Shown here: piece by piece, positions 5,250 to 26,944 of the stretch
Layout: every line of letters begins with the position of its first letter
Numbering within the stretch: position 1 is the first letter of the stretch
NCBI RefSeq assembly: GCF_013409305.1
Contig: NZ_JACBZJ010000001.1
Coordinates: 62,001 to 126,000, forward strand
Reading direction: 5' to 3'
Source of the DNA: Cellulomonas soli
Lineage (GTDB): Bacteria > Actinomycetota > Actinomycetes > Actinomycetales > Cellulomonadaceae
Length of the DNA: 64,000 nucleotides
The notes under the pieces: generated by a model
The model's database searches: none
What the model was told of the DNA's origin: nothing
The model's input: the letters and a program-made list of their open reading frames with translations, nothing else
Made by a program: the position numbers and the translations under genes

Positions 5250-7385
5250 TCAGCGCCGCGACTGCAGCACCGCGACGAGCGAGCGCAGCCGCGGGCTGTC
5301 GAACAGGTCCTCGATCAGCACGACCTGCCCCGAGCCGTCGGCCAGCGGGACCTTCCAGTTCGGGTACTCCTGGTCGGTGCCGGGCTGGTTCTGCGCGCGA
5401 CGCTCCCCCACCGCGTCGGCGAGGGAGACGCCGAGCAGCACCGACGGGGTCGCCATGACCCAGCGGTGCAGCGCCTCGACGACCTCGCGCTCGGACGGAT
5501 CCTCGCCGAGGAAGCCTCGTTCGCGCAGCAGCCCGATCATGCGCTCGCGCTCGACCCGGGCGGCGGCGCGGACCGTCTCGACGGGCTCGGTGAGCAGACC
5601 GAGGCGCTCCCGCAGCGCGACGTGCTCACCGGCCAGGTACCCGGCGCTGGGCGGCAGGTCGTGCGTGGTGACCGTGGCCAGGACCAGCGGTCGGTAGTGC
5701 TCGGGGGCGAGCGGCCCGCCGGTCATCTCGTGCTCGAACCACAGCACGGACGTGCCCAGCACGCCCCGCTCGGACAGGTAGTCACGCACCCACGGCTCGA
5801 CGACGCCGAGGTCCTCGCCGATGACGACCGCGCCGGCGCGGTGCGCCTCGAGCGCGAGGATCCCCACGAGCGCCTCGTGGTCGTAGCGGACGTACGCGCC
5901 CTCGGCCGGCGAGTGACCCTCGGGCACCCACCACAGCCGGAAGAGCCCGATGACGTGGTCGATGCGGATCGCCCCCGCGTGCCGCAGCACGGTGCGCAGC
6001 ATGTCGCGGTACGGCCGGTAGGCCGCACGTGCCAGGGCATCGGGGTGCCAGGGCGGCTGCGACCAGTCCTGGCCCTGCTGGTTGTACATGTCGGGCGGCG
6101 CGCCCACGGTCGCACCTCGGGCGAGCACATCCGCGAGCGCCCAGGAGTCGGCCCCCTCCGGGTGCGCGCCGACCGCGAGGTCGTGCATGATGCCCAGCGC
6201 CATGCCGCCGTCCAGCGCGGCCTGCTGCGCCTCCGCGAGCTGGCAGTCGGCGACCCACTGCAGCCACCGGTGGAACTCGATGCGCTCGGCCAGCTCCGAA
6301 CGGGCGGCCGTGACGAGCGTGGAGGTCGGGTCCATCGCCTCGACGGGCCAGGCCCGTCCGGCGTACCGCTCGGAGAGCGCGCACCACAGGGCGAAGCCGT
6401 CGAGCCCCGAGCCCTGCTCCTCCTTGAACTGCACGAATGCGGCCTCACGCGCGGCCGAGCGCGGGGCGGCGAAGACGACCTCGAGGGCGGAGCGCTTGGC
6501 CGTCCAGACCGCGTCCCGGTCGATGGGGCCCGGGTCGGTGTCGAGCGCGAGGACCGTCTCGGCGGACCACTCGACGAGCGAGCGGTCGGCTGCGCTCAGG
6601 TAGGCGGTCTCGCGCACGTCCTCGACGCGGATGTACAGCGGGCTGACGAACCGGCGCGTCGTGGGCAGGTAGGGCGAGGGCGTGACGGGCACGGTGGGCT
6701 CGGAGGCGTGCAGCGGGTTGATCAGCAGGAAGTCCGCGCCGCAGCGTCGCCCGGACAGCCACCCGAGGTCGGCGAGGTCCGCCAGGTCCCCGATGCCCCA
6801 CGAGGCGTGCGAGCGCACGGAGTACAGCTGGGCCATGAAGCCCCACGCGTGCCGGTCCCGCAGCACCTCGGGCAGCTCGAGGCGGGCGGGGGTCACGACG
6901 ACCGGGCTGTGCGCGTGCGCGCTCGGCCCCTCGGCGTGCACCTCGTGCCAACCGAGCGGCAGGTCCGCCGGGAGCGTGAACGTCGCGCGCCCCACGAGGC
7001 GCCCGTCGACCGTGCGCGGTTCGACGTAGACGTCGGCCTGCGCGATCTCCCGTCGCCCGCCGCCGACCTCCGGGTCGAGCTCGAGCCAGACCTCGACGGG
7101 GTCGCCGTCCGTGACGTGCACCGGGACGTGGCCGTGGCGTCCCTGCCGGACGACGACGACGGGCGGCAGCACGCGCCTCCACGGCATGTCCTCGACGTGC
7201 GCGGTGGCCAGGGCGATCCGCGCCGGGGACGAGGCGTCGACGCCGAGCGCCCCGAGGACGCCGCGCAGCGTGTCGGCGGAGACGTCGCGGCGGGTGCCGT
7301 CGAACCCCCAGTAGTCCGGGGTGATGCCGTAGGCGCCAGCCAGGCGCAGCAGCTCGTCGGAAGGGCGCTGCTGGTCGTCGGCCAC
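5250..7385 (-). CDS. malQ: 4-alpha-glucanotransferase (amylomaltase, GH77)
   Basis: A 711-residue enzyme that transfers maltodextrin segments between glucans in glycogen and maltose metabolism. The GH77 landmarks are present: the nucleophile region IRIDHVIGLFRLWW, the acid/base region VIGEDLGVVEPWV, and TTHDLPPSAGY with the third carboxylate. About 150 extra N-terminal residues before the barrel are normal for the long actinobacterial form. The frame is open far upstream, but a GTG at 7385 with AGGA eight to nine bases before it matches the family N-terminus (ADDQQRPSDELLRLAGAYGI). It is divergent from the S9 peptidase. Confidence 0.93.
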   Translation of the reverse strand: MADDQQRPSDELLRLAGAYGITPDYWGFDGTRRDVSADTLRGVLGALGVDASSPARIALATAHVEDMPWRRVLPPVVVVRQGRHGHVPVHVTDGDPVEVWLELDPEVGGGRREIAQADVYVEPRTVDGRLVGRATFTLPADLPLGWHEVHAEGPSAHAHSPVVVTPARLELPEVLRDRHAWGFMAQLYSVRSHASWGIGDLADLADLGWLSGRRCGADFLLINPLHASEPTVPVTPSPYLPTTRRFVSPLYIRVEDVRETAYLSAADRSLVEWSAETVLALDTDPGPIDRDAVWTAKRSALEVVFAAPRSAAREAAFVQFKEEQGSGLDGFALWCALSERYAGRAWPVEAMDPTSTLVTAARSELAERIEFHRWLQWVADCQLAEAQQAALDGGMALGIMHDLAVGAHPEGADSWALADVLARGATVGAPPDMYNQQGQDWSQPPWHPDALARAAYRPYRDMLRTVLRHAGAIRIDHVIGLFRLWWVPEGHSPAEGAYVRYDHEALVGILALEAHRAGAVVIGEDLGVVEPWVRDYLSERGVLGTSVLWFEHEMTGGPLAPEHYRPLVLATVTTHDLPPSAGYLAGEHVALRERLGLLTEPVETVRAAARVERERMIGLLRERGFLGEDPSEREVVEALHRWVMATPSVLLGVSLADAVGERRAQNQPGTDQEYPNWKVPLADGSGQVVLIEDLFDSPRLRSLVAVLQSRR

Positions 7386-7550
7386 GGCCCGATCCTGCCA
7401 GAAGGGTCCACGGGTCCGCAGGAGCAGCGTGGGCGCGTCACGGCCCTGCGGGCCACCCGCTGACCCTCGGGGCATGGCCCGACGATCGGGCGGCTGCCTC
7501 GCGCAGACGGCACGACCCCCGCACGGCTGCACGTCGTAGCCTTGCGGACC

Positions 7551-16461: not shown

Positions 16462-16965
16462 TCAGGCGTCGGTGCGCGAACCCCGGCGACGCATCCGCAC
16501 CGGCTCCTCGACGTAGGGCGCCCACGCAGCCCGCACCTCCTCGTCGATGCGTTGCGGCGCACCGGTGACCGCGTCCACGATGACCAGGGTCGTGACGGCC
16601 TTGGCGTAGATCACGCTCGCGGGGTCGGCCGGCGGCAGGTCGCGCACCTCGTAGCAGACGTCGAGGCTCGCCCCGCCGAGGTGGCCCAACCACATCTCGA
16701 TGACGACCGGCCGACGGCGGTACGCCAGCGGGCGCAGGTACTCGATCTCCTGCCGGGCCACCAGCGTCGACAGCGGAGCCCCCGGAGCGGCGTCGATGAC
16801 GGCAGTCGGCCAGTGGCGCACCGACCCGTCCGGCGTCGGCGGGTGGCTCCAGAACACCTCGATGCGCGCCTCCTCGAGCAGGCGCAGCATCTCGACGTTG
16901 TTGACGTGCGCGTAGGCGTCCATGTCGGACCAGCGCAGCTGCACCGGCACCTCGAGCCTGGTCAT
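16462..16965 (-). CDS. 4HBT-type acyl-CoA thioesterase
   Basis: 167 residues with the 4-hydroxybenzoyl-CoA thioesterase hot-dog signature RWSDMDAYAHVNNVEMLRL, where the aspartate (D14) and the H-V-N-N stretch (20-23) form the active site. The remainder is a single hot-dog with an Arg-rich tail. Its ATG overlaps the stop of the upstream GTPase gene (ATGA), so it is the last gene of the 20.7-16.5 kb operon. The link between a thioesterase and membrane-remodelling GTPases is unexplained. Confidence 0.85.
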   Translation of the reverse strand: MTRLEVPVQLRWSDMDAYAHVNNVEMLRLLEEARIEVFWSHPPTPDGSVRHWPTAVIDAAPGAPLSTLVARQEIEYLRPLAYRRRPVVIEMWLGHLGGASLDVCYEVRDLPPADPASVIYAKAVTTLVIVDAVTGAPQRIDEEVRAAWAPYVEEPVRMRRRGSRTDA

Positions 16966-18689
16966 CGGGCCCCTTCCGGGTCGTGGGATCGGTGGGCAGC
17001 GCCGGCTGCCCGGTCGGCGGACGTCCGGCACAGCGTCCAACGGTCGAGCTCGGCGGCCACCGGGTCGACGACGCGCTCGTTCGCGACGGCACGGACCGCG
17101 GCACGCAGGCGACGGCCGGCGGCCGCGGCGCGGCGTCGGGCACCCCAGCCGACGAGCAGCGAGGCCAGCAGCGCGAGCAGGACACCCGCGAGGAGGCCGC
17201 CGAGTGCCAGCGCGGTCGGCACGGGCAGCCCGCCCCACCGAGGCGTCGACGGCTCGGGCAGGCGCAGGTAGGCCAGCACGGCGAGCAGGCCAAGCCAGAG
17301 CAGACCGACGGCGGCCGCCGCGAGCAGCGCGCCGTGCAGGACGGCGGCCACCCGCCACCACCGCGGTGCGCGGTCCGGCAGCAGCGTCGTGGCCGCCACC
17401 GCCTGGTCGAGCGCGTCGGGCAGGGCGTCGACGGGCGCGGCCGCGCGTGCCGCGTCGGCCCACGCCGGCGGGGCACCCTCGAGCGCGGCACGGACGTACG
17501 TGCGCACCGCTTCCGAGACGCGTGCCCGAGTGACGGGACCACCGGCGGCCTGCACCGCTCCCGCGCGGGCCTGCGCGTCCGGCGTCGACCCGGGCCGAGG
17601 AGGAGCAGGGAGCGGCACATGCAGCCCGGTGCGCGTGGTCGTCGCCTCGCGCGGCGTCCCGGCGCGCAGGTGCAGCCGCCGCAGCGGGTCGGCCCGCCAC
17701 CGGTGCACCCAGCGCAGCGGCGGCCACCCGGTGGCGGCCCGTCCCGCACGCGCGGCAGAGCCCCGCACCGCCTCGACGACGAGCGGCACCCCGGCCGCCA
17801 CCTCGCACGCGCCGACGAGCTCACCGAGGTCGGGCGGCGTGCGGCGGGCGGTGCGGGCTGGTGCAGGGACCGCGTCCTGCACGCGTCGGCCGCCCGCCGC
17901 GACGTCGGCCTCGAGGCGGGCGACGGCAGCGCGGCGACGCGCGGCGGCCTGCCCGAGCAGTGCCCGCAGCTCGTCCACCCCGGCTCCCGTCCGGGCGCTG
18001 ACCGCGAGCACCGGCACCGCGCCCAGACCGTCCTCGACCGCGAGCCTCCGCACGTCGGCCACGCAGGCCGCGACATCACCCTCGGAGAGGCGGTCGGCGT
18101 GGTTGAGCACGAGCACCATGACCGCGGCGTGCCCGGCCAGCGGGCGCAGGTACCGCGTGTGCAGGACCGCGTCGGCGTACTTCTGCGGGTCGAGCACCCA
18201 CACGATGAGGTCGGCGCGCGCGTACAGCCGCTCGGCCACGGCGCGGTGCGCGGACTCCACTGAGTCGTGGTCCGGCAGGTCGAGCAGGACCAGACCGGGC
18301 AGCCCGCCGGACGCGACCTCGACCCGCGCACGCACGTCGAGCCAGTCGAGCAACGCGTGCGCCTCGGCCGCGCCGGTGCCGTCGTCCGGTCCGGCTCCTG
18401 GCCAGACGGCCGCGACCGGCTCGGCCGTCGTCGGGCGCAGCAGCCCCTCCTGCGCGACGTCCGTCCCGGTCAGGGCGTTGGCGAGGGACGACTTGCCGGA
18501 GCCGGTGGCCCCGGCCAGGGCGACCACGGTGCGCTCCGGTGCGAGCGCCAACCGCTCGCGCACGCGCGCCACCGTCGCGGTCAGGTCGACCACGAGCGCG
18601 GAGGGCAGCCGACCGTCACCGGCCGCCGCGGCCTGCTCCAGGGCGTCCACCCGGTCGGCGAGGTCACCGCTGCGCACCCCGCGCGTCAC
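16962..18689 (-). CDS. Dynamin-like/YfjP-type membrane GTPase, second member of pair A
   Basis: 575 residues. The G domain has P-loop GATGSGKS (about 60-67), a switch region RPTT (86-89), a DLPD G3 motif (137-140) and NHAD as G4 (196-199). The middle is Arg/Ala-rich and predicted helical, followed by two or three transmembrane segments (about 430-510) and a short basic tail. The architecture resembles bacterial dynamin-like proteins. The frame is open far upstream; the GTG at 18689 overlaps the stop of the preceding GTPase (GTGA), which fixes the start and couples the two. Paralogue of the 23162-24667 protein, including the LVLLDLPDHDSVESAHR phrase. Confidence 0.85.
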   Translation of the reverse strand: MTRGVRSGDLADRVDALEQAAAAGDGRLPSALVVDLTATVARVRERLALAPERTVVALAGATGSGKSSLANALTGTDVAQEGLLRPTTAEPVAAVWPGAGPDDGTGAAEAHALLDWLDVRARVEVASGGLPGLVLLDLPDHDSVESAHRAVAERLYARADLIVWVLDPQKYADAVLHTRYLRPLAGHAAVMVLVLNHADRLSEGDVAACVADVRRLAVEDGLGAVPVLAVSARTGAGVDELRALLGQAAARRRAAVARLEADVAAGGRRVQDAVPAPARTARRTPPDLGELVGACEVAAGVPLVVEAVRGSAARAGRAATGWPPLRWVHRWRADPLRRLHLRAGTPREATTTRTGLHVPLPAPPRPGSTPDAQARAGAVQAAGGPVTRARVSEAVRTYVRAALEGAPPAWADAARAAAPVDALPDALDQAVAATTLLPDRAPRWWRVAAVLHGALLAAAAVGLLWLGLLAVLAYLRLPEPSTPRWGGLPVPTALALGGLLAGVLLALLASLLVGWGARRRAAAAGRRLRAAVRAVANERVVDPVAAELDRWTLCRTSADRAAGAAHRSHDPEGAR

Positions 18690-20662
18690 CGCTCGTCCCG
18701 CGATCGGCGACGCCACCAGCGCCACGACCGGCGCGCACCGGTCGACTGCCCGACGTCGCCGGTCGGTTCGATGCCCCCTGCTCCCGGCTCCCCGGGCAAG
18801 AGGTCCGCGCCGCGCAACCGGCCGACCGACGCCGTCCCCACCCGCCGCTGGTCGTCGTCCGGCGCACCAGCCGTCACGGGCGGCCGCGGGGCGGCCGCGA
18901 CACGCTGCACCGCGTCCCGCACCCCGCGCGCGTCGTCGGCGCCCAGGCCGAGCGCATCGAGCGGCACGACGAACCGCGCCGACTCCCGGTCCGCCACCGT
19001 GCCCAACCGGGTGGTGAGCCTCTCCTGCGCGGTCCGGGTCAGGCGGCGGACCGCGTCGTCGCCGAAGACCGCCTCGAGCACGCGCTGGGCCAGGACCGCC
19101 GCGCCGCCCGCGATGCCCACCTCGGCACCCGTCAGACCGCCCGTCGAGGCGAACACGGCGAGCATGAGCGCCGCACCGAGCCCGTTGACACCGAGCGAGA
19201 AGGCACGAGCCGCCGTGCGCCGGCCCGCGCCCTCGTCGACCACCAGCGCCAGCACGTCGTCCTGCCAGGCCCGCACCTCGGCCGCCACGTCGGCCCGCAG
19301 CCGGGCGCGGTCGCCGGGGCCGACCTCGTCCAGCAGCCCGGCCCCTGCCTCGTCGGCGCGCCACGACGAGGCCACCTGCTCGGCGGCCGTCGACAGCGCG
19401 TCGACGACGAGGACGTCGAGGTCGTGCCCGATCGCCTCCTGGAGCGCCGGGACAGCCGGGGGCCGGCCACGCAGCGCGGCGACGAGCCGGTCGCGCAGCC
19501 GGGAGACCTGACGTTCCAACGAACGGAACAGCTCGCCGGTGCCGACCAGCTCCTGCCAGCGGGCCAGCACCTCGCCGCGCAGCAACGTGCCGTCCGACGT
19601 CGCCCGGGCGACGTCCGCGAGGGCGGCGGAGAAGGCGTGGTCCACCTGCGCCCGGAGCCGGTCCCGGCTCGATCGCTGCGCGTCGGCCGCCTCGGCGACG
19701 TGGCCCGCGCGCCGGACGACGTCCTCGAGGAGCCCGTCGCGCGTCTGGCCGATCGCGGCGGCCCGGGCACCGGCGTCCGCCCCGAGCGTGGTCAGCCACC
19801 GTGCGACGGGTGCGACCGCGACCGCCGGCAGGAGCCCGTCGACCAGCGGCGCCTCGGGGACCAGCAGGACCGGCACGTCGGCCAGCCCGTGCGCGTCGAG
19901 CATGGCGCGCAGGTGCGCGCGCACGGGCTCCTGCGCACCTGGGTCGACCCGGTCGAGCACGATCGCCAGGGCGACGGAGCGACGGGCGGCCTCGGCGAGC
20001 AGGTCCCAGGGCACGGCGTCGGCATACCGGGCTGCGGTCGTCACGAACAGCCAGAGGTCGGCGGCGCCGAGCAGCTGGACCGCGAGCGCACGGTTCTCCT
20101 CGACGACCGAGTCGATGTCGGGCGCGTCCAGCAGGGCGAGACCGGGCCACAACGCCTCGGCGGCGACGAGGCGCAACCCCGCGGGGTGACTGACCTCCAC
20201 CCCGCTCCGACCGGCGGTGCCGGCCTCCTGGTCAGAGGTGTCGGCGCCGTCGAGGGTCGGGTTCCCGGACGCGGCGTCCCGCACCCGTGCGAGCCCGGGC
20301 AGGATGCGCTCGGTGGAGAACCACCCGGCGTCGTCGGGGTGGTGCACGAGCACGGGCCATCGCGTGGTGGGCCGCAGCACGCCGGCCGAGGTGACCTGCC
20401 GGCCGAGCAGGGAGTTCACCAGCGTCGACTTGCCCGCGCCCGTGGACCCACCGAGCACGGCGAGCAGGGGCGCACCCGACGAGCGCAGCCTCGGCAGCAG
20501 CTGGTCGTCGAGCTGCTGCAGCACCGCGGCCCGCGTCGCACGGGCCTCCTGGGCACCGGCGACGTCGAGCGGGAGGGCGACCTGGCCCAGGTGGGCACGC
20601 AGGTCGAGCAACGCCTCGGCGAGGGCGGACGGGTCCGCTCCCGCCGAGGCGTGCGTGCTCAC
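18686..20662 (-). CDS. Dynamin-like membrane GTPase, first member of pair A
   Basis: 658 residues. G1 is GSTGAGKS (about 72-79), the switch I threonines are in VLRPTTRWPV, G3 is the unusual DAPD (179-182, DAPDIDSVVEENR), and G4 is LDRVD (236-240). A long helical region follows, then a hydrophobic stretch near 560-600 (LGAALMLAVFASTGGL and the Gly/Ala-rich segment after it). It matches the 24664-26421 protein motif for motif, so the two are paralogues. The GTG start lies ten bases after ettA's stop, making ettA, this gene, its partner and the thioesterase one operon. GTP hydrolysis is inferred from motifs only. Confidence 0.85.
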   Translation of the reverse strand: MSTHASAGADPSALAEALLDLRAHLGQVALPLDVAGAQEARATRAAVLQQLDDQLLPRLRSSGAPLLAVLGGSTGAGKSTLVNSLLGRQVTSAGVLRPTTRWPVLVHHPDDAGWFSTERILPGLARVRDAASGNPTLDGADTSDQEAGTAGRSGVEVSHPAGLRLVAAEALWPGLALLDAPDIDSVVEENRALAVQLLGAADLWLFVTTAARYADAVPWDLLAEAARRSVALAIVLDRVDPGAQEPVRAHLRAMLDAHGLADVPVLLVPEAPLVDGLLPAVAVAPVARWLTTLGADAGARAAAIGQTRDGLLEDVVRRAGHVAEAADAQRSSRDRLRAQVDHAFSAALADVARATSDGTLLRGEVLARWQELVGTGELFRSLERQVSRLRDRLVAALRGRPPAVPALQEAIGHDLDVLVVDALSTAAEQVASSWRADEAGAGLLDEVGPGDRARLRADVAAEVRAWQDDVLALVVDEGAGRRTAARAFSLGVNGLGAALMLAVFASTGGLTGAEVGIAGGAAVLAQRVLEAVFGDDAVRRLTRTAQERLTTRLGTVADRESARFVVPLDALGLGADDARGVRDAVQRVAAAPRPPVTAGAPDDDQRRVGTASVGRLRGADLLPGEPGAGGIEPTGDVGQSTGARRSWRWWRRRSRDER

Positions 20663-20672
20663 GGCCGGACCG

Positions 20673-22355
<1,683 letters not shown>

Positions 22356-22397
22356 TGGCTCTGTGTCCGCCTGCCTGCTCGGTGGTGGGGGGACGTG

Positions 22398-22442
22398 GCA
22401 GGTCGGCCGGCGTCGAGGTGTGCGCGTCGCGGGCCGACCTGC
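22398..22442. other. Long-loop inverted repeat upstream of ettA
   Basis: GCAGGTCGGCC and its exact complement flank a 23-base loop in the 124 bases between ssb and ettA. It could end the ssb transcript or be a structured leader for ettA; the sequence alone does not decide. Confidence 0.4.
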
Positions 22443-22479
22443 TGCGTCGTCGGGTGTGCCGGTCCCCCAGCCTAGGCGA

Positions 22480-23028
22480 TCACCTGGCCAGCGCCAGGTC
22501 GCGCTCCTCCTCCTCGACAGCCACGAGCGTGCCGACCAGGTCGACGTCGTCGAGGGCCATGAGCGCCGAGACGTCCACGGGGTCGAGGCCCGGCTCCTGC
22601 TCGTCGCCGGGCTCGATCGCGGCGGTCTGCTCCCCCGCCGCGTCACCCTGCCCGCCGGTGTGCACGGTCCGCATGAACTGCGCGCTGCCGTACGTCAGGT
22701 CGTGGCCGATGGCGGCCGCCTCGATGACGAGCGTGGTGCGGGGGCCGTCGGCACCCGTCCAGTCCTCGGTGGCGATCCGGCCGTGCACCAGCACCGGGTC
22801 GCCCTTGCGCAGCGAGGTCGCGGCGTTGAGCGCGGTGCCCCGGAAGGCCTTGACGGTGAACCACTCGGTGCGGCCGTCCTTCCAGAGACCGGACTCGCGG
22901 TCGAACCAGCGCCGGGTGCTGGCCATGCGGAACGAGGTGTACGGCGTGCCGCCGTCGGTGCCCGGGTAGTGCCGGACGGGGGTCGCGATCCAGCCGACGA
23001 GCGTCAGGTCGAGGGAGTGCGTGCTCAT
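22480..23028 (-). CDS. ssb: Single-stranded DNA-binding protein, SsbB-like
   Basis: 182 residues with one OB-fold domain at the N-terminus (TLVGWIATPVRHYPG through WFTVKAFRGTALNAATSLRKGDPVLVHGRI). The C-terminal part is acidic but ends in EEEERDLALAR and lacks the DDDIPF tip by which replication SSBs bind partner proteins, so it is more likely the auxiliary second SSB of actinobacteria than the essential one. Strong GGAGG site before ATG 23028. It sits between two dynamin-like GTPase pairs, and I recall a similar neighbourhood in Streptomyces, where ssbB acts in sporulation-associated chromosome segregation. Confidence 0.9.
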   Translation of the reverse strand: MSTHSLDLTLVGWIATPVRHYPGTDGGTPYTSFRMASTRRWFDRESGLWKDGRTEWFTVKAFRGTALNAATSLRKGDPVLVHGRIATEDWTGADGPRTTLVIEAAAIGHDLTYGSAQFMRTVHTGGQGDAAGEQTAAIEPGDEQEPGLDPVDVSALMALDDVDLVGTLVAVEEEERDLALAR

Positions 23029-23091
23029 GGGTGCCTCCGAGGGCGCGGGCCTCGCGGTGTGCGGGGCGGGTCGCGCCAGACTCGCGACGTC

Positions 23092-23119
23092 GGGTCCGGT
23101 CCCGTTCGCGACCGGACCC
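23092..23119. terminator. Hairpin between GTPase pair B and ssb
   Basis: A perfect 10-bp stem (GGGTCCGGTC/GACCGGACCC) with an 8-base loop lies 43 bases after the stop of the second pair-B GTPase gene and before ssb. It probably ends the pair-B transcript, separating it from ssb-ettA. Confidence 0.6.
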
Positions 23120-23161
23120 GCCCAGGAGAGCCCGCAGGCGCCGACCGGGGCTGGGGGTGGC

Positions 23162-24667
23162 TCAGCGGATGGCGGAGGCGGCCAGCTCGCGCACGCGCCG
23201 GTGCTCGGCGAGCACGACCTGCGTGGGCTCGACGAGCCGCACCACCGCCACGTGCTCGAGCGCCGAACGCCCGGCCCGCAGCACCCCGGAGGCCCGGCGT
23301 CGGGCCGCCGCCCGCCGCACGGCACCGGCGACGACCAGCAGCACCACACCCAGGACGACCAGGGCGATCGCACCTGCGGTCGTCCAGCCGTTGGCCGGCT
23401 CGCCACCGCCGAACCGTGAACCCACGGCGACCGAGGCCAGCAGCGCGCCCGCGCCCAGCGCGATCACGGCCAGCACCGTCACGGTGGCCGCCCAGCCTGA
23501 ACGCCGTGCCGCGACGCCGACCCCCGCGAGCGAGTCCGCGACGGCCAGCCGCAGCTCGGCAGGGGTCGCCACCCGCTCGGCGACGTCCCGCGACCATCGC
23601 CGCGGAAGGCCGGGGGTCACAGCCGCGAGCCACGCGGCACGAGCGAGGTCCACGGCGTCGGACTGCACCGCGCCGAAGGCCGGCACGGTCCGGGAACCGC
23701 CACGAACGACGGCCGCGACGGCGTCCGCCACAGCCCGCAGGCCCGCGGCGCTCGCCAACGTCTCCACGACGTCACCCACCGCGAGGGCCGTCGGCGACGG
23801 CTCGCGCAGTCCGACCTGCGCGGCCACGAGCGCGGCGGCGTCGTTGACCTCGGCCCCGGCACGCTTGGCCGCGAGCGAACGCGTGCGAACGACGGCGGAG
23901 AGCAGGTCCCGCAGCTCGGCGACGCCCTCCCCCGTCACGGTCGAGATCGGCCGCACATCCACCCCGGTGAGCCCGTCCTCGACGAGCAGCCGCGCCACGT
24001 CGTCCGCGAGGTCGCCGCGCACGTCCGGCGGCACGGTGTCGACCTGGTTCAGCACGACGACCATCGCGGCCTCGTGCCCGACGAGCCGCTGCAGGTAGCC
24101 GGTGTGCAGCGCGTCGTCGGCGTACTTCTGCGGGTCGACGACCCACACGAGCAGGTCGGCCTGCGGCAGCAACCGGTCGACCACCTCGCGGTGCGCCGGC
24201 TCGATCGAGTCGTGGTCGGGCAGGTCGAGAAGCACCAGGCCGCGCAGGGGCGCCTCGGTGTCACCGTCGAGCAGGCTCTCGCGCACGATGCGGCGGTCCT
24301 CGGCGACGGTCAGCCAGTCGAGCAGCGGGTCGCCGTCCTCGCCCCACACGCACGCCGTGATCTGCGAGGTCGTCGGACGCTTGACGCCGACGTCGGCGAA
24401 GTCGAGCCCGCACACGGCGTTGAACAGGCTGGACTTGCCCGAGCCCGTCCCCCCGACGAGAGCGACGACCGTCTGGTCGACACCCAGCTCGATGCGCTCG
24501 CGCACCCCGTCGATCGAGCGCGCGACGCGTGCCACGACCGCGGGCTCGAGACGCTCGGCCCCGATGACGAGGGCTTCGTCGAGCGCGACCACACGGTGCG
24601 CCAGCTCGAGCGTCTCGTCACCGTGCAACGCGCCACGGGCGACCGGAACCGGCTCAGCAGTGCTCAC
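23162..24667 (-). CDS. Dynamin-like/YfjP-type membrane GTPase, second member of pair B
   Basis: 501 residues. G1 is GGTGSGKS (72-79), the switch region is KRPTT (96-100), G3 is DLPD (148-151, followed by HDSIEPAHR) and G4 is NQVD (207-210). A helical middle follows, then two transmembrane helices (about 395-420 and 432-455), and a basic C-terminus. The same layout and several identical phrases (VWVxDPQKYADD/A..LHT.YLxxLxGH) occur in the 16962-18689 protein, its paralogue. Its GTG overlaps the upstream gene's stop (GTGA). The second helix pair suggests tail anchoring with the G domain in the cytosol. Confidence 0.85.
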   Translation of the reverse strand: MSTAEPVPVARGALHGDETLELAHRVVALDEALVIGAERLEPAVVARVARSIDGVRERIELGVDQTVVALVGGTGSGKSSLFNAVCGLDFADVGVKRPTTSQITACVWGEDGDPLLDWLTVAEDRRIVRESLLDGDTEAPLRGLVLLDLPDHDSIEPAHREVVDRLLPQADLLVWVVDPQKYADDALHTGYLQRLVGHEAAMVVVLNQVDTVPPDVRGDLADDVARLLVEDGLTGVDVRPISTVTGEGVAELRDLLSAVVRTRSLAAKRAGAEVNDAAALVAAQVGLREPSPTALAVGDVVETLASAAGLRAVADAVAAVVRGGSRTVPAFGAVQSDAVDLARAAWLAAVTPGLPRRWSRDVAERVATPAELRLAVADSLAGVGVAARRSGWAATVTVLAVIALGAGALLASVAVGSRFGGGEPANGWTTAGAIALVVLGVVLLVVAGAVRRAAARRRASGVLRAGRSALEHVAVVRLVEPTQVVLAEHRRVRELAASAIR

Positions 24668-26421
24668 GTGAGTCCCTTCAGGACGGCCAGCCGCAGCCGC
24701 AGCCGCGAGGCCGCGTCGTCGGCGAGGTCCGGGTCGTCCAACGCTGCGCCCGCCTGCGCCCGTTCGAGCGCCACCTGCGCCTCGACTCGGTCGACCAGCT
24801 CGGACGACAGCTCCTCGACCGCCTGGGAACCGGCCGCCCCGAGCACGTCCGCGAGCAGCTCACGGGCGGGCACGACGCCCGCGGCACCAGCCAGGGCGAT
24901 CGCCGCGAGGCCCTCGGTGGTGAGGATCTTCTCCGCCTTGGCGCGCCTGCGCGCCTCACGCGTGACGTCACGACCGCGACGCACGTCGCCCTCGGGCGTG
25001 GTCGTGGGCGGGGGCACGGCGAGCGCCGCCCGCACCGCGCGAGGGCCCTGCGCGACCCAGGCGCGCGCCGTCTGCTCGGCAGCGGTCGTGCGGACCTGCA
25101 CGCTGTCCCCGCTGGGCCAGGCGGCGTCGACCGAGGCTCCGCCCTCAGGGGCACCGGGACCGACCAGCCGCGCGCGCAGCACACGCTCCGTGTGCGTCCC
25201 GGCTGCACCCATCGCCGAGGTCACGGCACGGGCGAGGTCGGCCAGCAGCGGCTCGACCGCGACGGCCCGCGCCCGACCGGCACGGGCCGAGCCACGCAGC
25301 CGACCCGACGGCCGCGGGATGCCCGCGAAGGCAGCACCGGGTGTGGTCAGCTCGGCCCAGCGGGCGCGCACGGCGCCGTCGGCCACCGCACCCCCGCGCA
25401 CCGAGGCCACCGCCTGAGCCGTCGGCTCGACGAGCGCGTCGTCGAGCGCGTCGGCGATCCGACCTGCCGCGTCGGCCTGGTGCTGGACGGCCTCGGCCAG
25501 CTCGTCGACCCACGGGCGCAGCGCGGACAAGGACCCGCGAAGCGTGCGCCCGATGACCGTGCGGGCACGGTCGGGACCGGCGAGCATCTGCAGCCAGCGC
25601 TGGATGGGCGCGACGACGGCCGAGGCGAGCAACCCCTCGTGCGGCCCGACGTCCGGCACCACGAACAGCGGCGAGCCCTGCAGCCCGTGCCCGCGCAGCC
25701 GTTCGAGCAGGTCGCCGCGCACGGTCGGCAACGAGGCCGGCGGCACCCGGTTGAGCACCATGGCGATCGACGTGCCGCGGTCGACGGCCGCCTGCAGCAC
25801 CTGCCACGGCAGCGCGTCGCCGTAGCGCGCCGCGGTCGTGACGAACAGCCACAGGTCGGCGGCCTCCAGCAGCCGGTGCGCCGAGAGGCGGTTGGACTCC
25901 AGCACCGAGTCCAGGTCGGGCGCGTCGAGCAGCGCGATGCCCCGCGGGACGCTCTCGTCCGCGACGACCTCGACGGACTCCAGCACGGGGTGGTGCGAGA
26001 GCAGCTCGACGTCGAGCGGGTTGTGCACCAGGACCGGACGACGCGTGGTGGGCCGCAGCACGCCCGCGGCGCTCACCTCACGGCCGACCAGGGAGTTGAC
26101 CAGCGTCGACTTGCCCGCACCCGTCGAGCCGGACACGACCACGACCGCGGGCGCCGACAGCTCGGTCAGCCGCGGCACGAGGTGCTCGGCGAGCTGGTCG
26201 ACGAGACGAGCACGGGACGCCGCAGCCGCCTCGGTGTCCGACAGGTCCAGCGGGAACGTGGTCGCGGCGACATCGCGGTGCAGGTCACGGACCGCGTCGA
26301 GCAGCGACTGCGCCGCCAACGGGCGGGCCAGGACGTCGCGCGCGAGGGCCTCGTGGGCCGACGACGCAGGGCGCGCCGATGGCGCGGACTGCGGGTCTGC
26401 CTGCGCACTCACAGGGTCCAT
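24664..26421 (-). CDS. Dynamin-like GTPase, first member of pair B
   Basis: 585 residues. G1 GSTGAGKS (98-105), switch threonines in VLRPTTRRPVLVHNP, G3 DAPD (166-169, DAPDLDSVLESNR), and G4-like LNRV in MVLNRVPP (about 223-226), which lacks the usual aspartate. The C-terminal region has one moderately hydrophobic stretch (LAAIALAGAAGVVPARELL) and no clear transmembrane pair, unlike its partner. The ATG at 26421 has no ribosome site and may be leaderless; GTG three codons later is an alternative. Head of the pair-B operon, divergent from tRNA-Arg. Confidence 0.83.
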   Translation of the reverse strand: MDPVSAQADPQSAPSARPASSAHEALARDVLARPLAAQSLLDAVRDLHRDVAATTFPLDLSDTEAAAASRARLVDQLAEHLVPRLTELSAPAVVVVSGSTGAGKSTLVNSLVGREVSAAGVLRPTTRRPVLVHNPLDVELLSHHPVLESVEVVADESVPRGIALLDAPDLDSVLESNRLSAHRLLEAADLWLFVTTAARYGDALPWQVLQAAVDRGTSIAMVLNRVPPASLPTVRGDLLERLRGHGLQGSPLFVVPDVGPHEGLLASAVVAPIQRWLQMLAGPDRARTVIGRTLRGSLSALRPWVDELAEAVQHQADAAGRIADALDDALVEPTAQAVASVRGGAVADGAVRARWAELTTPGAAFAGIPRPSGRLRGSARAGRARAVAVEPLLADLARAVTSAMGAAGTHTERVLRARLVGPGAPEGGASVDAAWPSGDSVQVRTTAAEQTARAWVAQGPRAVRAALAVPPPTTTPEGDVRRGRDVTREARRRAKAEKILTTEGLAAIALAGAAGVVPARELLADVLGAAGSQAVEELSSELVDRVEAQVALERAQAGAALDDPDLADDAASRLRLRLAVLKGLT

Positions 26422-26573: not shown

Positions 26574-26646
26574 GCCCCCGTAGCTCAACGGATAGAGCAA
26601 CGGCCTTCTAATCCGTCGGTTGCAGGTTCGAGTCCTGCCGGGGGCG
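26574..26646 (+). tRNA. tRNA-Arg (anticodon TCT)
   Basis: A complete cloverleaf: acceptor GCCCCCG/CGGGGGC, D arm GCTC..GAGC, anticodon loop CTTCTAA, T arm GCAGG TTCGAGT CCTGC, discriminator G, no encoded CCA. The anticodon TCT reads AGA. The last anticodon-stem pair (positions 31-39) is C-T and does not pair. The 3' end abuts a truncated gene, as expected where an element has used the tRNA as an attachment site. Confidence 0.92.
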
Positions 26647-26944
26647 CCCACGCAAGCCGGCCCGCAGAGCACGATCCCCGTTCGCGGCAGTCGGATGACG
26701 TCGTGCTCGGGCAGGCCGAACGTGACGGGTGCCCGCACCCCCGCATCGAGCGCGTCGAGGAGCCGACCCGAAGCGTCGAGCGCGTCACCCACCCCGGTGT
26801 CGTCGACGTCGGCGTCTCGAACGGCCTGCTCGAGCAGCCCGGCGAGTCCGCGCGCCTCGCTCTCGGAGAGGGTCAGGTGGACGTGGCGCAGGGTGCCAGG
26901 GTGCCGTCAGGTGCGATGTTGGGATCGGGTTCCATGCCCCGCAT
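26647..26944 (-). pseudogene. Broken small gene, frameshifted and cut off at tRNA-Arg
   Basis: Reading left from ATG 26935 (or 26944) gives MEPDPNIAPDGTL and then, eight bases out of register, RHVHLTLSESEARGLAGLLE and a further helical, Asp/Leu-rich stretch (AGRLLDALDAG-like, then PVTFGLPEHDVIRLPRTG). The two halves join perfectly if one copy of a tandem 8-base repeat at 26890-26905 is removed. The second frame has no stop before the tRNA and continues only as antisense-tRNA sequence, so the 3' end is lost. I do not recognise the family; the LTLSESEARGLAGLLEQA phrase looks like small actinobacterial helical proteins. Confidence 0.45.
26890..26905. repeat. Tandem 8-base duplication AGGGTGCC x2
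   Basis: Two adjacent identical copies of AGGGTGCC (26890-26897 and 26898-26905). Eight bases is not a multiple of three, so the duplication breaks the reading frame of the small gene described around it; deleting one copy restores a continuous frame. Confidence 0.7.

What the first reader, a model, noticed from the sequence alone, without database searches (positions are those of the whole stretch)
16962..26421. Two paralogous pairs of dynamin-like GTPases flank ssb and ettA
Four large GTPases occur in 9.5 kb, all leftward: B1-B2, ssb, ettA, A1-A2. Within each pair the first protein has the DAPD G3 variant and the second DLPD followed by HDS-E-AHR, and each pair overlaps by GTGA. So an ancestral heteromeric pair was duplicated as a unit and the two copies kept both subunit types. 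Bacterial dynamin pairs (Streptomyces DynA/DynB, Bacillus DynA, mycobacterial IniA/IniC) remodel membranes in septation or stress; two complete pairs around an SSB and a translation throttle suggests a division- or stress-linked system of four proteins not described to my knowledge.
Basis: partly seen in the sequence, partly recalled or inferred. Interest (0 to 1): 0.72.

Follow-up and report, generated by a model that had tools for sequence, protein, structure and literature searches.

The report
Two DynA/DynB dynamin pairs, one cluster
An actinobacterium carries two different copies of a known pair of membrane-shaping, dynamin-like proteins (relatives of the pair that helps Streptomyces build division walls) in one gene cluster with a DNA-binding protein and a ribosome regulator; the family is known, but this doubled arrangement is a variation whose purpose is untested.

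Summary
In detail: four dynamin-type GTPases lie leftward in 16962-26421. Transcription order is A1-A2-ssb-ettA-B1-B2-thioesterase (the finding misplaces ssb and ettA). A1/B1 are one subunit type, A2/B2 (two TM segments) the other. Both pairs overlap by GTGA.

The pairs belong to the family of Streptomyces DynA/DynB, described divisome proteins. In 74 of 80 Streptomyces-group loci the homologous pair and an ssb are present, in 63 with ettA and thioesterase too. Pairs stand by ssb and/or ettA in 13 sampled families. So the setting is old, not a new system.

The doubling is the unusual part. It is not a family-local duplication: a tree joining this family's A and B pairs is rejected (p-AU 6e-45). 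The pairs are old paralogues, each inherited as a unit. The B pair sits after ettA in this family and in two examined genomes of another; elsewhere it is unlinked or not found. In 5 of 24 congeners only the A pair was found, so an obligate four-protein machine is unlikely.

Most likely each pair is a membrane-anchored DynA/DynB-type heteromer at the division site, B being accessory. Function is inferred only.

The parts
24664..26421 (-). A1: DynA-type (type-1) dynamin-like GTPase, 585 aa, no TM segment over the threshold used, G3 DAPD, G4 degenerate (NRVP)
23162..24667 (-). A2: DynB-type (type-2) dynamin-like GTPase, 501 aa, two C-terminal hydrophobic (TM-like) segments, G3 DLPDHDS, G4 NQVD; GTGA overlap with A1
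22480..23028 (-). second SSB of the genome (182 aa), without the ...PF tail (SsbB-like)
20673..22355 (-). EttA, energy-dependent translational throttle (ABC-F), 560 aa
   Evidence: NF008775 916.7 bits against cut-off 599; TIGR03719 895.9 against 806.75
18686..20662 (-). B1: DynA-type dynamin-like GTPase, 658 aa; starts 10 bases after the ettA stop
16962..18689 (-). B2: DynB-type dynamin-like GTPase, 575 aa, two C-terminal hydrophobic (TM-like) segments; GTGA overlap with B1
16462..16965 (-). 4HBT_2 thioesterase-like protein; ATGA overlap with B2; right-hand end of the cluster

Best explanation
The locus is the actinobacterial dynA-dynB-ssb-ettA-thioesterase cluster with a second, anciently diverged dynA-dynB pair placed between ettA and the thioesterase. 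Each pair encodes one heteromeric bacterial dynamin: a DynB-type subunit (A2, B2) anchored by a transmembrane hairpin and carrying complete GTPase motifs, and a DynA-type subunit (A1, B1) without a clear TM anchor and with a degenerate G4 motif. By homology to Streptomyces DynA/DynB the most likely action is that the pair assembles on the inner membrane at the division site and steadies the Z-ring or remodels septal membrane in a GTP-dependent way. The B pair is an accessory paralogue, probably co-transcribed with ettA, perhaps acting under other conditions or with other partners. Shown by calls: anatomy, family, neighbourhood, relative age of the pairs, existence of congeners in which B was not found. 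Inferred: complex formation, place in the cell, function, co-transcription.
For: Pfam Dynamin_N above cut-off for all four. The A2 model (pLDDT 84.9) has a G domain flanked by helices and a C-terminal hairpin; its top seven solved matches are IniA, the paired bacterial dynamins 5owv/5oxf, and BDLP. TM-like segments: A2 and B2 two, A1 none, B1 one marginal; published DynB has two TM segments (PMC8748795, passages). A1 is 37-40% identical to Streptomyces DynA-position proteins (32 of the 79 on hand) and A2 35-38% to DynB-position proteins (32 of 80). Streptomyces-group context, 80 loci: 63 have pair + ssb + ettA + thioesterase within the fetched DNA, 11 pair + ssb only, 5 pair only, 1 all but the DynA-type gene. 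The ssb lacks the PF tail, as do 141 of 145 ssb hits in loci with such pairs; S. coelicolor SsbB is reported to lack the acidic tail (PMC5945547, passage). The genome also has one SsgA-family protein; SsgB is a reported DynB partner (PMC8748795, passages). sepX-dynB co-occurrence is reported in unicellular actinobacteria (PMC8748795, passage).
Against: No experiment in this genus. Identity to Streptomyces proteins is only 35-40%, and the trees place neither A nor B firmly beside them. S. venezuelae itself was not among the 80 named loci, and the DynA/DynB paper (PNAS 2017) was not readable, so identity with the studied proteins rests on there being one DynB-type match in each of the 13 f17 genomes listed with a match. 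Streptomyces DynAB act in sporulation septation; whether this genus sporulates was not tested. The A1 model is weak (pLDDT 63.6) and whole-length TM-scores are low for both models (0.17-0.36 by query length in the rows shown), so the fold match is chiefly the G domain and its flanking helices. No promoter or terminator was found by the simple scan.
Confidence: 0.62

Rival explanations
1. A four-subunit machine: A and B pairs form mixed complexes and work together as one division or stress system.
For: Both pairs stand in one cluster on one contig in 16 of 24 congeners and across a contig break in 2 more, in the 5 other-genus members of family f1 examined (one with A1 cut by a contig end) and in 2 of 5 f13 genomes examined.
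Against: In 5 of 24 congeners, and in G327, only the A pair was found; in the f3 genomes and the other 3 f13 genomes examined the B pair is unlinked; the f6 and f11 genomes examined have a B-type pair and no A pair.
Confidence: 0.15
2. The pairs act in membrane repair or envelope-stress tolerance (as proposed for B. subtilis DynA and IniA) rather than in division.
For: General DLP fold; a repair role is proposed for B. subtilis DynA and speculated for other bacterial DLPs (PMC6104087, passages); an extra pair that some species lack fits a conditional role.
Against: Sequence and neighbourhood kin are Streptomyces DynA/DynB-type pairs; the genome has a separate IniA orthologue with another GTPase gene beside it for that niche.
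Confidence: 0.2
3. The B pair arose by tandem duplication of the A pair within this family and is a recent spare copy.
For: Same order, same GTGA overlaps, same strand, within 9.5 kb.
Against: Joining f1 A and f1 B pairs as one clade costs 380 log units (p-AU 6e-45); also rejected in each subunit tree (3e-4 and 8e-5). A wider grouping (all A + f1 B + linked f13 B) was not rejected (p-AU 0.114), so an older duplication near the base of these families stays possible.
Confidence: 0.03

Closest known systems
Streptomyces DynA/DynB (dynAB, sporulation septation)
   Same: Adjacent gene pair, type 1 then type 2; type 2 with two TM segments; one family by sequence; neighbourhood with ssb, ettA and thioesterase.
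   Different: Here two pairs, the second between ettA and thioesterase; 35-40% identity; host biology differs; no function shown.
Mycobacterial IniA/IniC
   Same: Actinobacterial dynamin-like pair; IniA is the best structural match of A2.
   Different: Separate family: the genome has its own IniA (E 1.5e-138 to M. smegmatis IniA) at another place.
Campylobacter Cj-DLP1/DLP2 (PDB 5owv, 5oxf; name from PMC6104087 and recall) and Nostoc BDLP
   Same: Heterotypic or membrane-binding bacterial dynamins with the same G domain plus helical stalk.
   Different: Not among the sequence hits shown for the two profiles at E 0.01 (best 60 of 65; 6 of 6); other phyla.
Bacillus DynA (two fused dynamins)
   Same: Two unlike dynamin subunits acting as one unit.
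   Different: Fused protein; NCBIfam model NF052648 gives 20.7 bits at most against a cut-off of 1600.

Membership tests
Bacterial dynamin-like proteins | Dynamin_N type G domain with G1, G3 and G4 motifs | tested here: met
   PF00350 above cut-off in all four; G1 and G3 intact; G4 N-Q-x-D or N-H-x-D in type 2, degenerate, most often [DN]RVP, in type 1
Bacterial dynamin-like proteins | Helical stalk and membrane-binding element after the G domain | tested here: met
   A2 model pLDDT 84.9 with helical bundle and hydrophobic hairpin; inconclusive for A1, whose C-terminal half has pLDDT of 65 or less per block; B1 and B2 were not modelled
Bacterial dynamin-like proteins | GTP hydrolysis and membrane remodelling | not testable with these tools
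   needs biochemistry
Streptomyces DynA/DynB family | Sequence homology of both subunits with the Streptomyces pair along most of their length | tested here: met
   S. venezuelae proteins themselves not compared
Streptomyces DynA/DynB family | Adjacent pair, DynB subunit with two TM segments, DynA subunit without | tested here: met
   B1 shows one marginal hydrophobic stretch (1.82 against threshold 1.8)
Streptomyces DynA/DynB family | Same gene neighbourhood (ssb, ettA, thioesterase) | tested here: met
Streptomyces DynA/DynB family | Orthology of A or B with the Streptomyces pair in a tree | tested here: inconclusive
   deep branches unresolved or model-dependent
Streptomyces DynA/DynB family | DynA-DynB interaction, septal localisation, Z-ring stabilisation | not testable with these tools
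   needs experiments
IniA/IniC | Closest relative is IniA or IniC by sequence | tested here: not met
   IniA is not among the best 60 of 65 PDB hits of the type-2 profile nor among the 6 of the type-1 profile; the genome's own IniA is elsewhere
Bacillus DynA | Match to NF052648 above its cut-off | tested here: not met
   16.1 (A2) and 20.7 (B2) bits against 1600; no row for A1 or B1

The most novel reading that the evidence does not exclude
The conserved neighbours are functional: dynA-dynB-ssbB-ettA-thioesterase is one module that couples closing of the division membrane with clearing of single-stranded or trapped chromosomal DNA and with braking of ribosomes in energy-poor cells, and this family has widened it to a two-pair, four-subunit dynamin machine whose A and B pairs act at different stages or form mixed assemblies.
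Probability: 0.12. Interest if true: 0.68.

Novelty: new variant of a known kind. Interest (0 to 1): 0.38.

Why it matters
Bacterial dynamins of the DynA/DynB kind have been studied in Streptomyces sporulation, yet here such pairs stand beside ssb and/or ettA in 13 sampled actinobacterial families, and congeneric species are seen with one pair and with two. That makes a natural comparison: what does a second, anciently diverged pair add? The neighbourhood also raises a testable link between septal membrane, the second SSB and EttA.

Tried and rejected
Duplication within the family: rejected. IniA/IniC identity: rejected. Bacillus DynA membership: rejected. Orthology of the A pair to the ssb-linked pairs of other families of the order: support 99 in the 40-row LG+G4 pair tree, 93 in the type-2 tree, not in the best type-1 tree (not rejected, p-AU 0.306), and not recovered in the 67-row mixture tree, whose deep forks are open; left open. 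The AU test on 67 rows with the mixture model did not finish, so 40 rows and LG+G4 were used. Operon signals: none found by consensus scan. Literature on the cluster: no paper on two such pairs or on this neighbourhood was among those listed by the searches (searches returned none; two searches listed 10 of 47,640 and 10 of 26); papers were judged by listing, and six of those listed also by passages. PMC6683498 matched 'dynab' only through 'Dynabeads'. PNAS 2017 (DynA/DynB) and NAR 2013 (SsbB) are not held; supplements were not open to me.

Limits: in whole-genome searches only some first-look candidates per genome were scored (9 to 12 at most; up to 34), so counts are lower bounds and 'not found' is not proof of absence.

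Rows dropped: one search left out proteins under 330 aa or, in later loci, under 75 bits. One search left out 17 congener loci as redundant and the incomplete pairs of L068, L072, L126 (A pair), L077, L082, L147, leaving 106 pairs; 67 were used. Labels A/B in the tables are best hits to the window's proteins, not tree results; L062, L064, L070, L093 and L141 have mixed best hits.
Full report
WHAT IS THERE. The region 16462-26421 is one leftward cluster. In transcription order it is A1 (585 aa), A2 (501), ssb (182), ettA (560), B1 (658), B2 (575), and a 4HBT thioesterase. A1/A2 and B1/B2 overlap by GTGA, B2/thioesterase by ATGA, and B1 starts 10 bases after the ettA stop. A tRNA-Arg lies on the other strand before A1 (26574-26648). 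All four large proteins pass Pfam's Dynamin_N cut-off. A1 pairs with B1 (216 bits, 38% over 462 columns) and A2 with B2 (187 bits, 50% over 261); the chief within-pair matches are in the G domain. In its own genome A2 matches only itself, B2 and, weakly, A1.

SUBUNIT TYPES. Type 1 (A1, B1) has G3 D-A-P-D and a degenerate G4, most often [DN]RVP; type 2 (A2, B2) has G3 D-L-P-D-H-D-S, the motif DPQKYAD and a G4 with N and D kept (N-Q-x-D in most, N-H-x-D in B2). Over 106 pairs these are the rule with exceptions. By hydropathy A2 and B2 have two strong C-terminal segments, A1 none and B1 one marginal. Over all rows of that call, type 2 (138 rows) has two segments in 92, three in 24, one in 13, none in 8 and four in 1; type 1 (137 rows) has none in 67, one in 64 and two in 6. 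A G-domain tree of 80 rows splits the types 40 against 40 at support 100. The A2 model (pLDDT 84.9) matches IniA, the paired bacterial dynamins 5owv/5oxf, BDLP and mitofusin best; the A1 model (pLDDT 63.6) matches mitofusin, EHD4 and 5owv. Whole-length TM-scores are low (0.17-0.36 by query length in the rows shown), so the match is mostly of the G domain and flanking helices.

FAMILY. A profile of type 2 found matches in 112 of 149 genomes of the order, 71 of 148 of the class and 24 of 119 of the phylum; none in the 4 listed f18 genomes and the 6 listed f58 genomes. The f17 genomes are Streptomyces: the protein of L075 is identical to one of Streptomyces cyaneofuscatus. Of these 80, 63 have pair, ssb, ettA and thioesterase within the fetched DNA, 11 pair and ssb, 5 the pair alone, and 1 all but the DynA-type gene; some of the incomplete ones are short contigs. 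Each of the 13 f17 genomes listed with a match has one type-2 match, so this is very likely the published DynA/DynB pair (DynB = vnz_12105, PMC8748795, passages), but S. venezuelae itself was not compared.

NEIGHBOURHOOD. Outside the families with an A pair, a pair stands beside ssb and/or ettA in loci of 13 families: f2, f5, f7, f8, f16, f17, f61, f64, f69, f71, f75 and f85 with both genes in at least one locus, f15 with ssb only. In the f6, f11, f77 and f82 loci examined the pair is not beside them. The ssb is the second SSB of the genome; the other ends in DEPPF, whereas this one does not. Of 145 ssb hits in loci with such pairs, 4 end in PF (L075 and L162 are the same gene, counted twice). 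S. [quoted passage not shown] ssbB is reported as poorly transcribed in ordinary growth of S. coelicolor (PMC6637917, passage).

TWO PAIRS. Of 24 congeners searched, 16 have A1A2, ssb, ettA and B1B2 on one contig in the window's order, 2 have the same genes across a contig break, in 5 only the A pair was found and in 1 (89% complete) none. In 3 of those 5 the ettA and thioesterase frames abut directly, in a fourth they overlap in stop-to-stop terms, and in the fifth (L058) neither ssb nor thioesterase was seen. In family f1, 11 of 12 genomes have two type-2 genes; the five other-genus loci examined have the window's arrangement, one with A1 cut by a contig end. All 11 listed f13 genomes have two; of 5 examined, 2 are linked like the window (in one of them, L128, the thioesterase is turned round) and 3 have the A pair by ssb-ettA and the B pair elsewhere. 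Six f69 genomes also have one linked and one unlinked pair, so having two pairs is not unique to this family.

HISTORY. In the pair trees the A pairs of f1, f3 and f13 form one clade (100; with f9 and f86), and the B pairs of f1 form a clade that also holds the two linked f13 B pairs (100, 98; in the FastTree that clade also draws in the long-branched f41 row). Holding f1 A and f1 B together is rejected, also in each subunit tree. Holding all A with f1 B and linked f13 B is not rejected (p-AU 0.114). So the split is older than the family, both genes of a pair moved together, and the B pair came to lie between ettA and the thioesterase either by relocation or by transfer; the f13 case hints at exchange of the linked B pair between families. 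Which of A or B is the true counterpart of Streptomyces DynAB is unresolved; position favours A.

FUNCTION. Inferred: each pair is a membrane-anchored heteromeric dynamin working at the division site as DynA/DynB do in Streptomyces (partners SepF2, SsgB, SepX: PMC8748795, passages; repression by BldC together with other division genes: PMC6428758, passages). One SsgA-family protein is in the genome. The genome also has an IniA orthologue with another GTPase gene beside it elsewhere, so a dynamin of the stress-linked kind is provided separately. Congeners without a detected B pair argue against an obligate four-protein machine.

VERDICT. Real and correctly seen; family known; arrangement a new variant as far as the searches named in Tried and rejected go.

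Noticed in passing
L159 7521-10672 (G000:C1 about 539.5-542.7 kb): A third dynamin pair of the genome: an IniA orthologue (E 1.5e-138 to M. smegmatis IniA) followed by a GTPase that looks IniC-like, and preceded by a gene (6226-7434) with long Asp/Asn/Ser/Thr-rich repeats that looks IniB-like (IniB and IniC by recollection, not searched).
   Followed up: partly
window 22480-23028: The ssb is a second SSB without the PF tail; this is the rule for ssb hits in loci with such dynamin pairs (141 of 145 do not end in PF).
   Followed up: partly
window 24664-26421 and 18686-20662: Type-1 subunits have a degenerate G4 motif (most often [DN]RVP in place of NKxD) across the family, suggesting altered nucleotide specificity or a mainly structural partner.
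   Followed up: partly
L128, L129 (two f13 genomes): They share the window's six-gene order, and their B pairs group inside the f1 B clade rather than with other f13 B pairs: possible transfer of the linked pair.
   Followed up: partly
L094-L105 (f69): Six genomes of another family have two DynA/DynB-type pairs, one beside ssb-ettA and one elsewhere.
   Followed up: no
G000:C1 1152204 and 3162810: Two further Dynamin_N-like P-loop matches in the genome, not identified.
   Followed up: no
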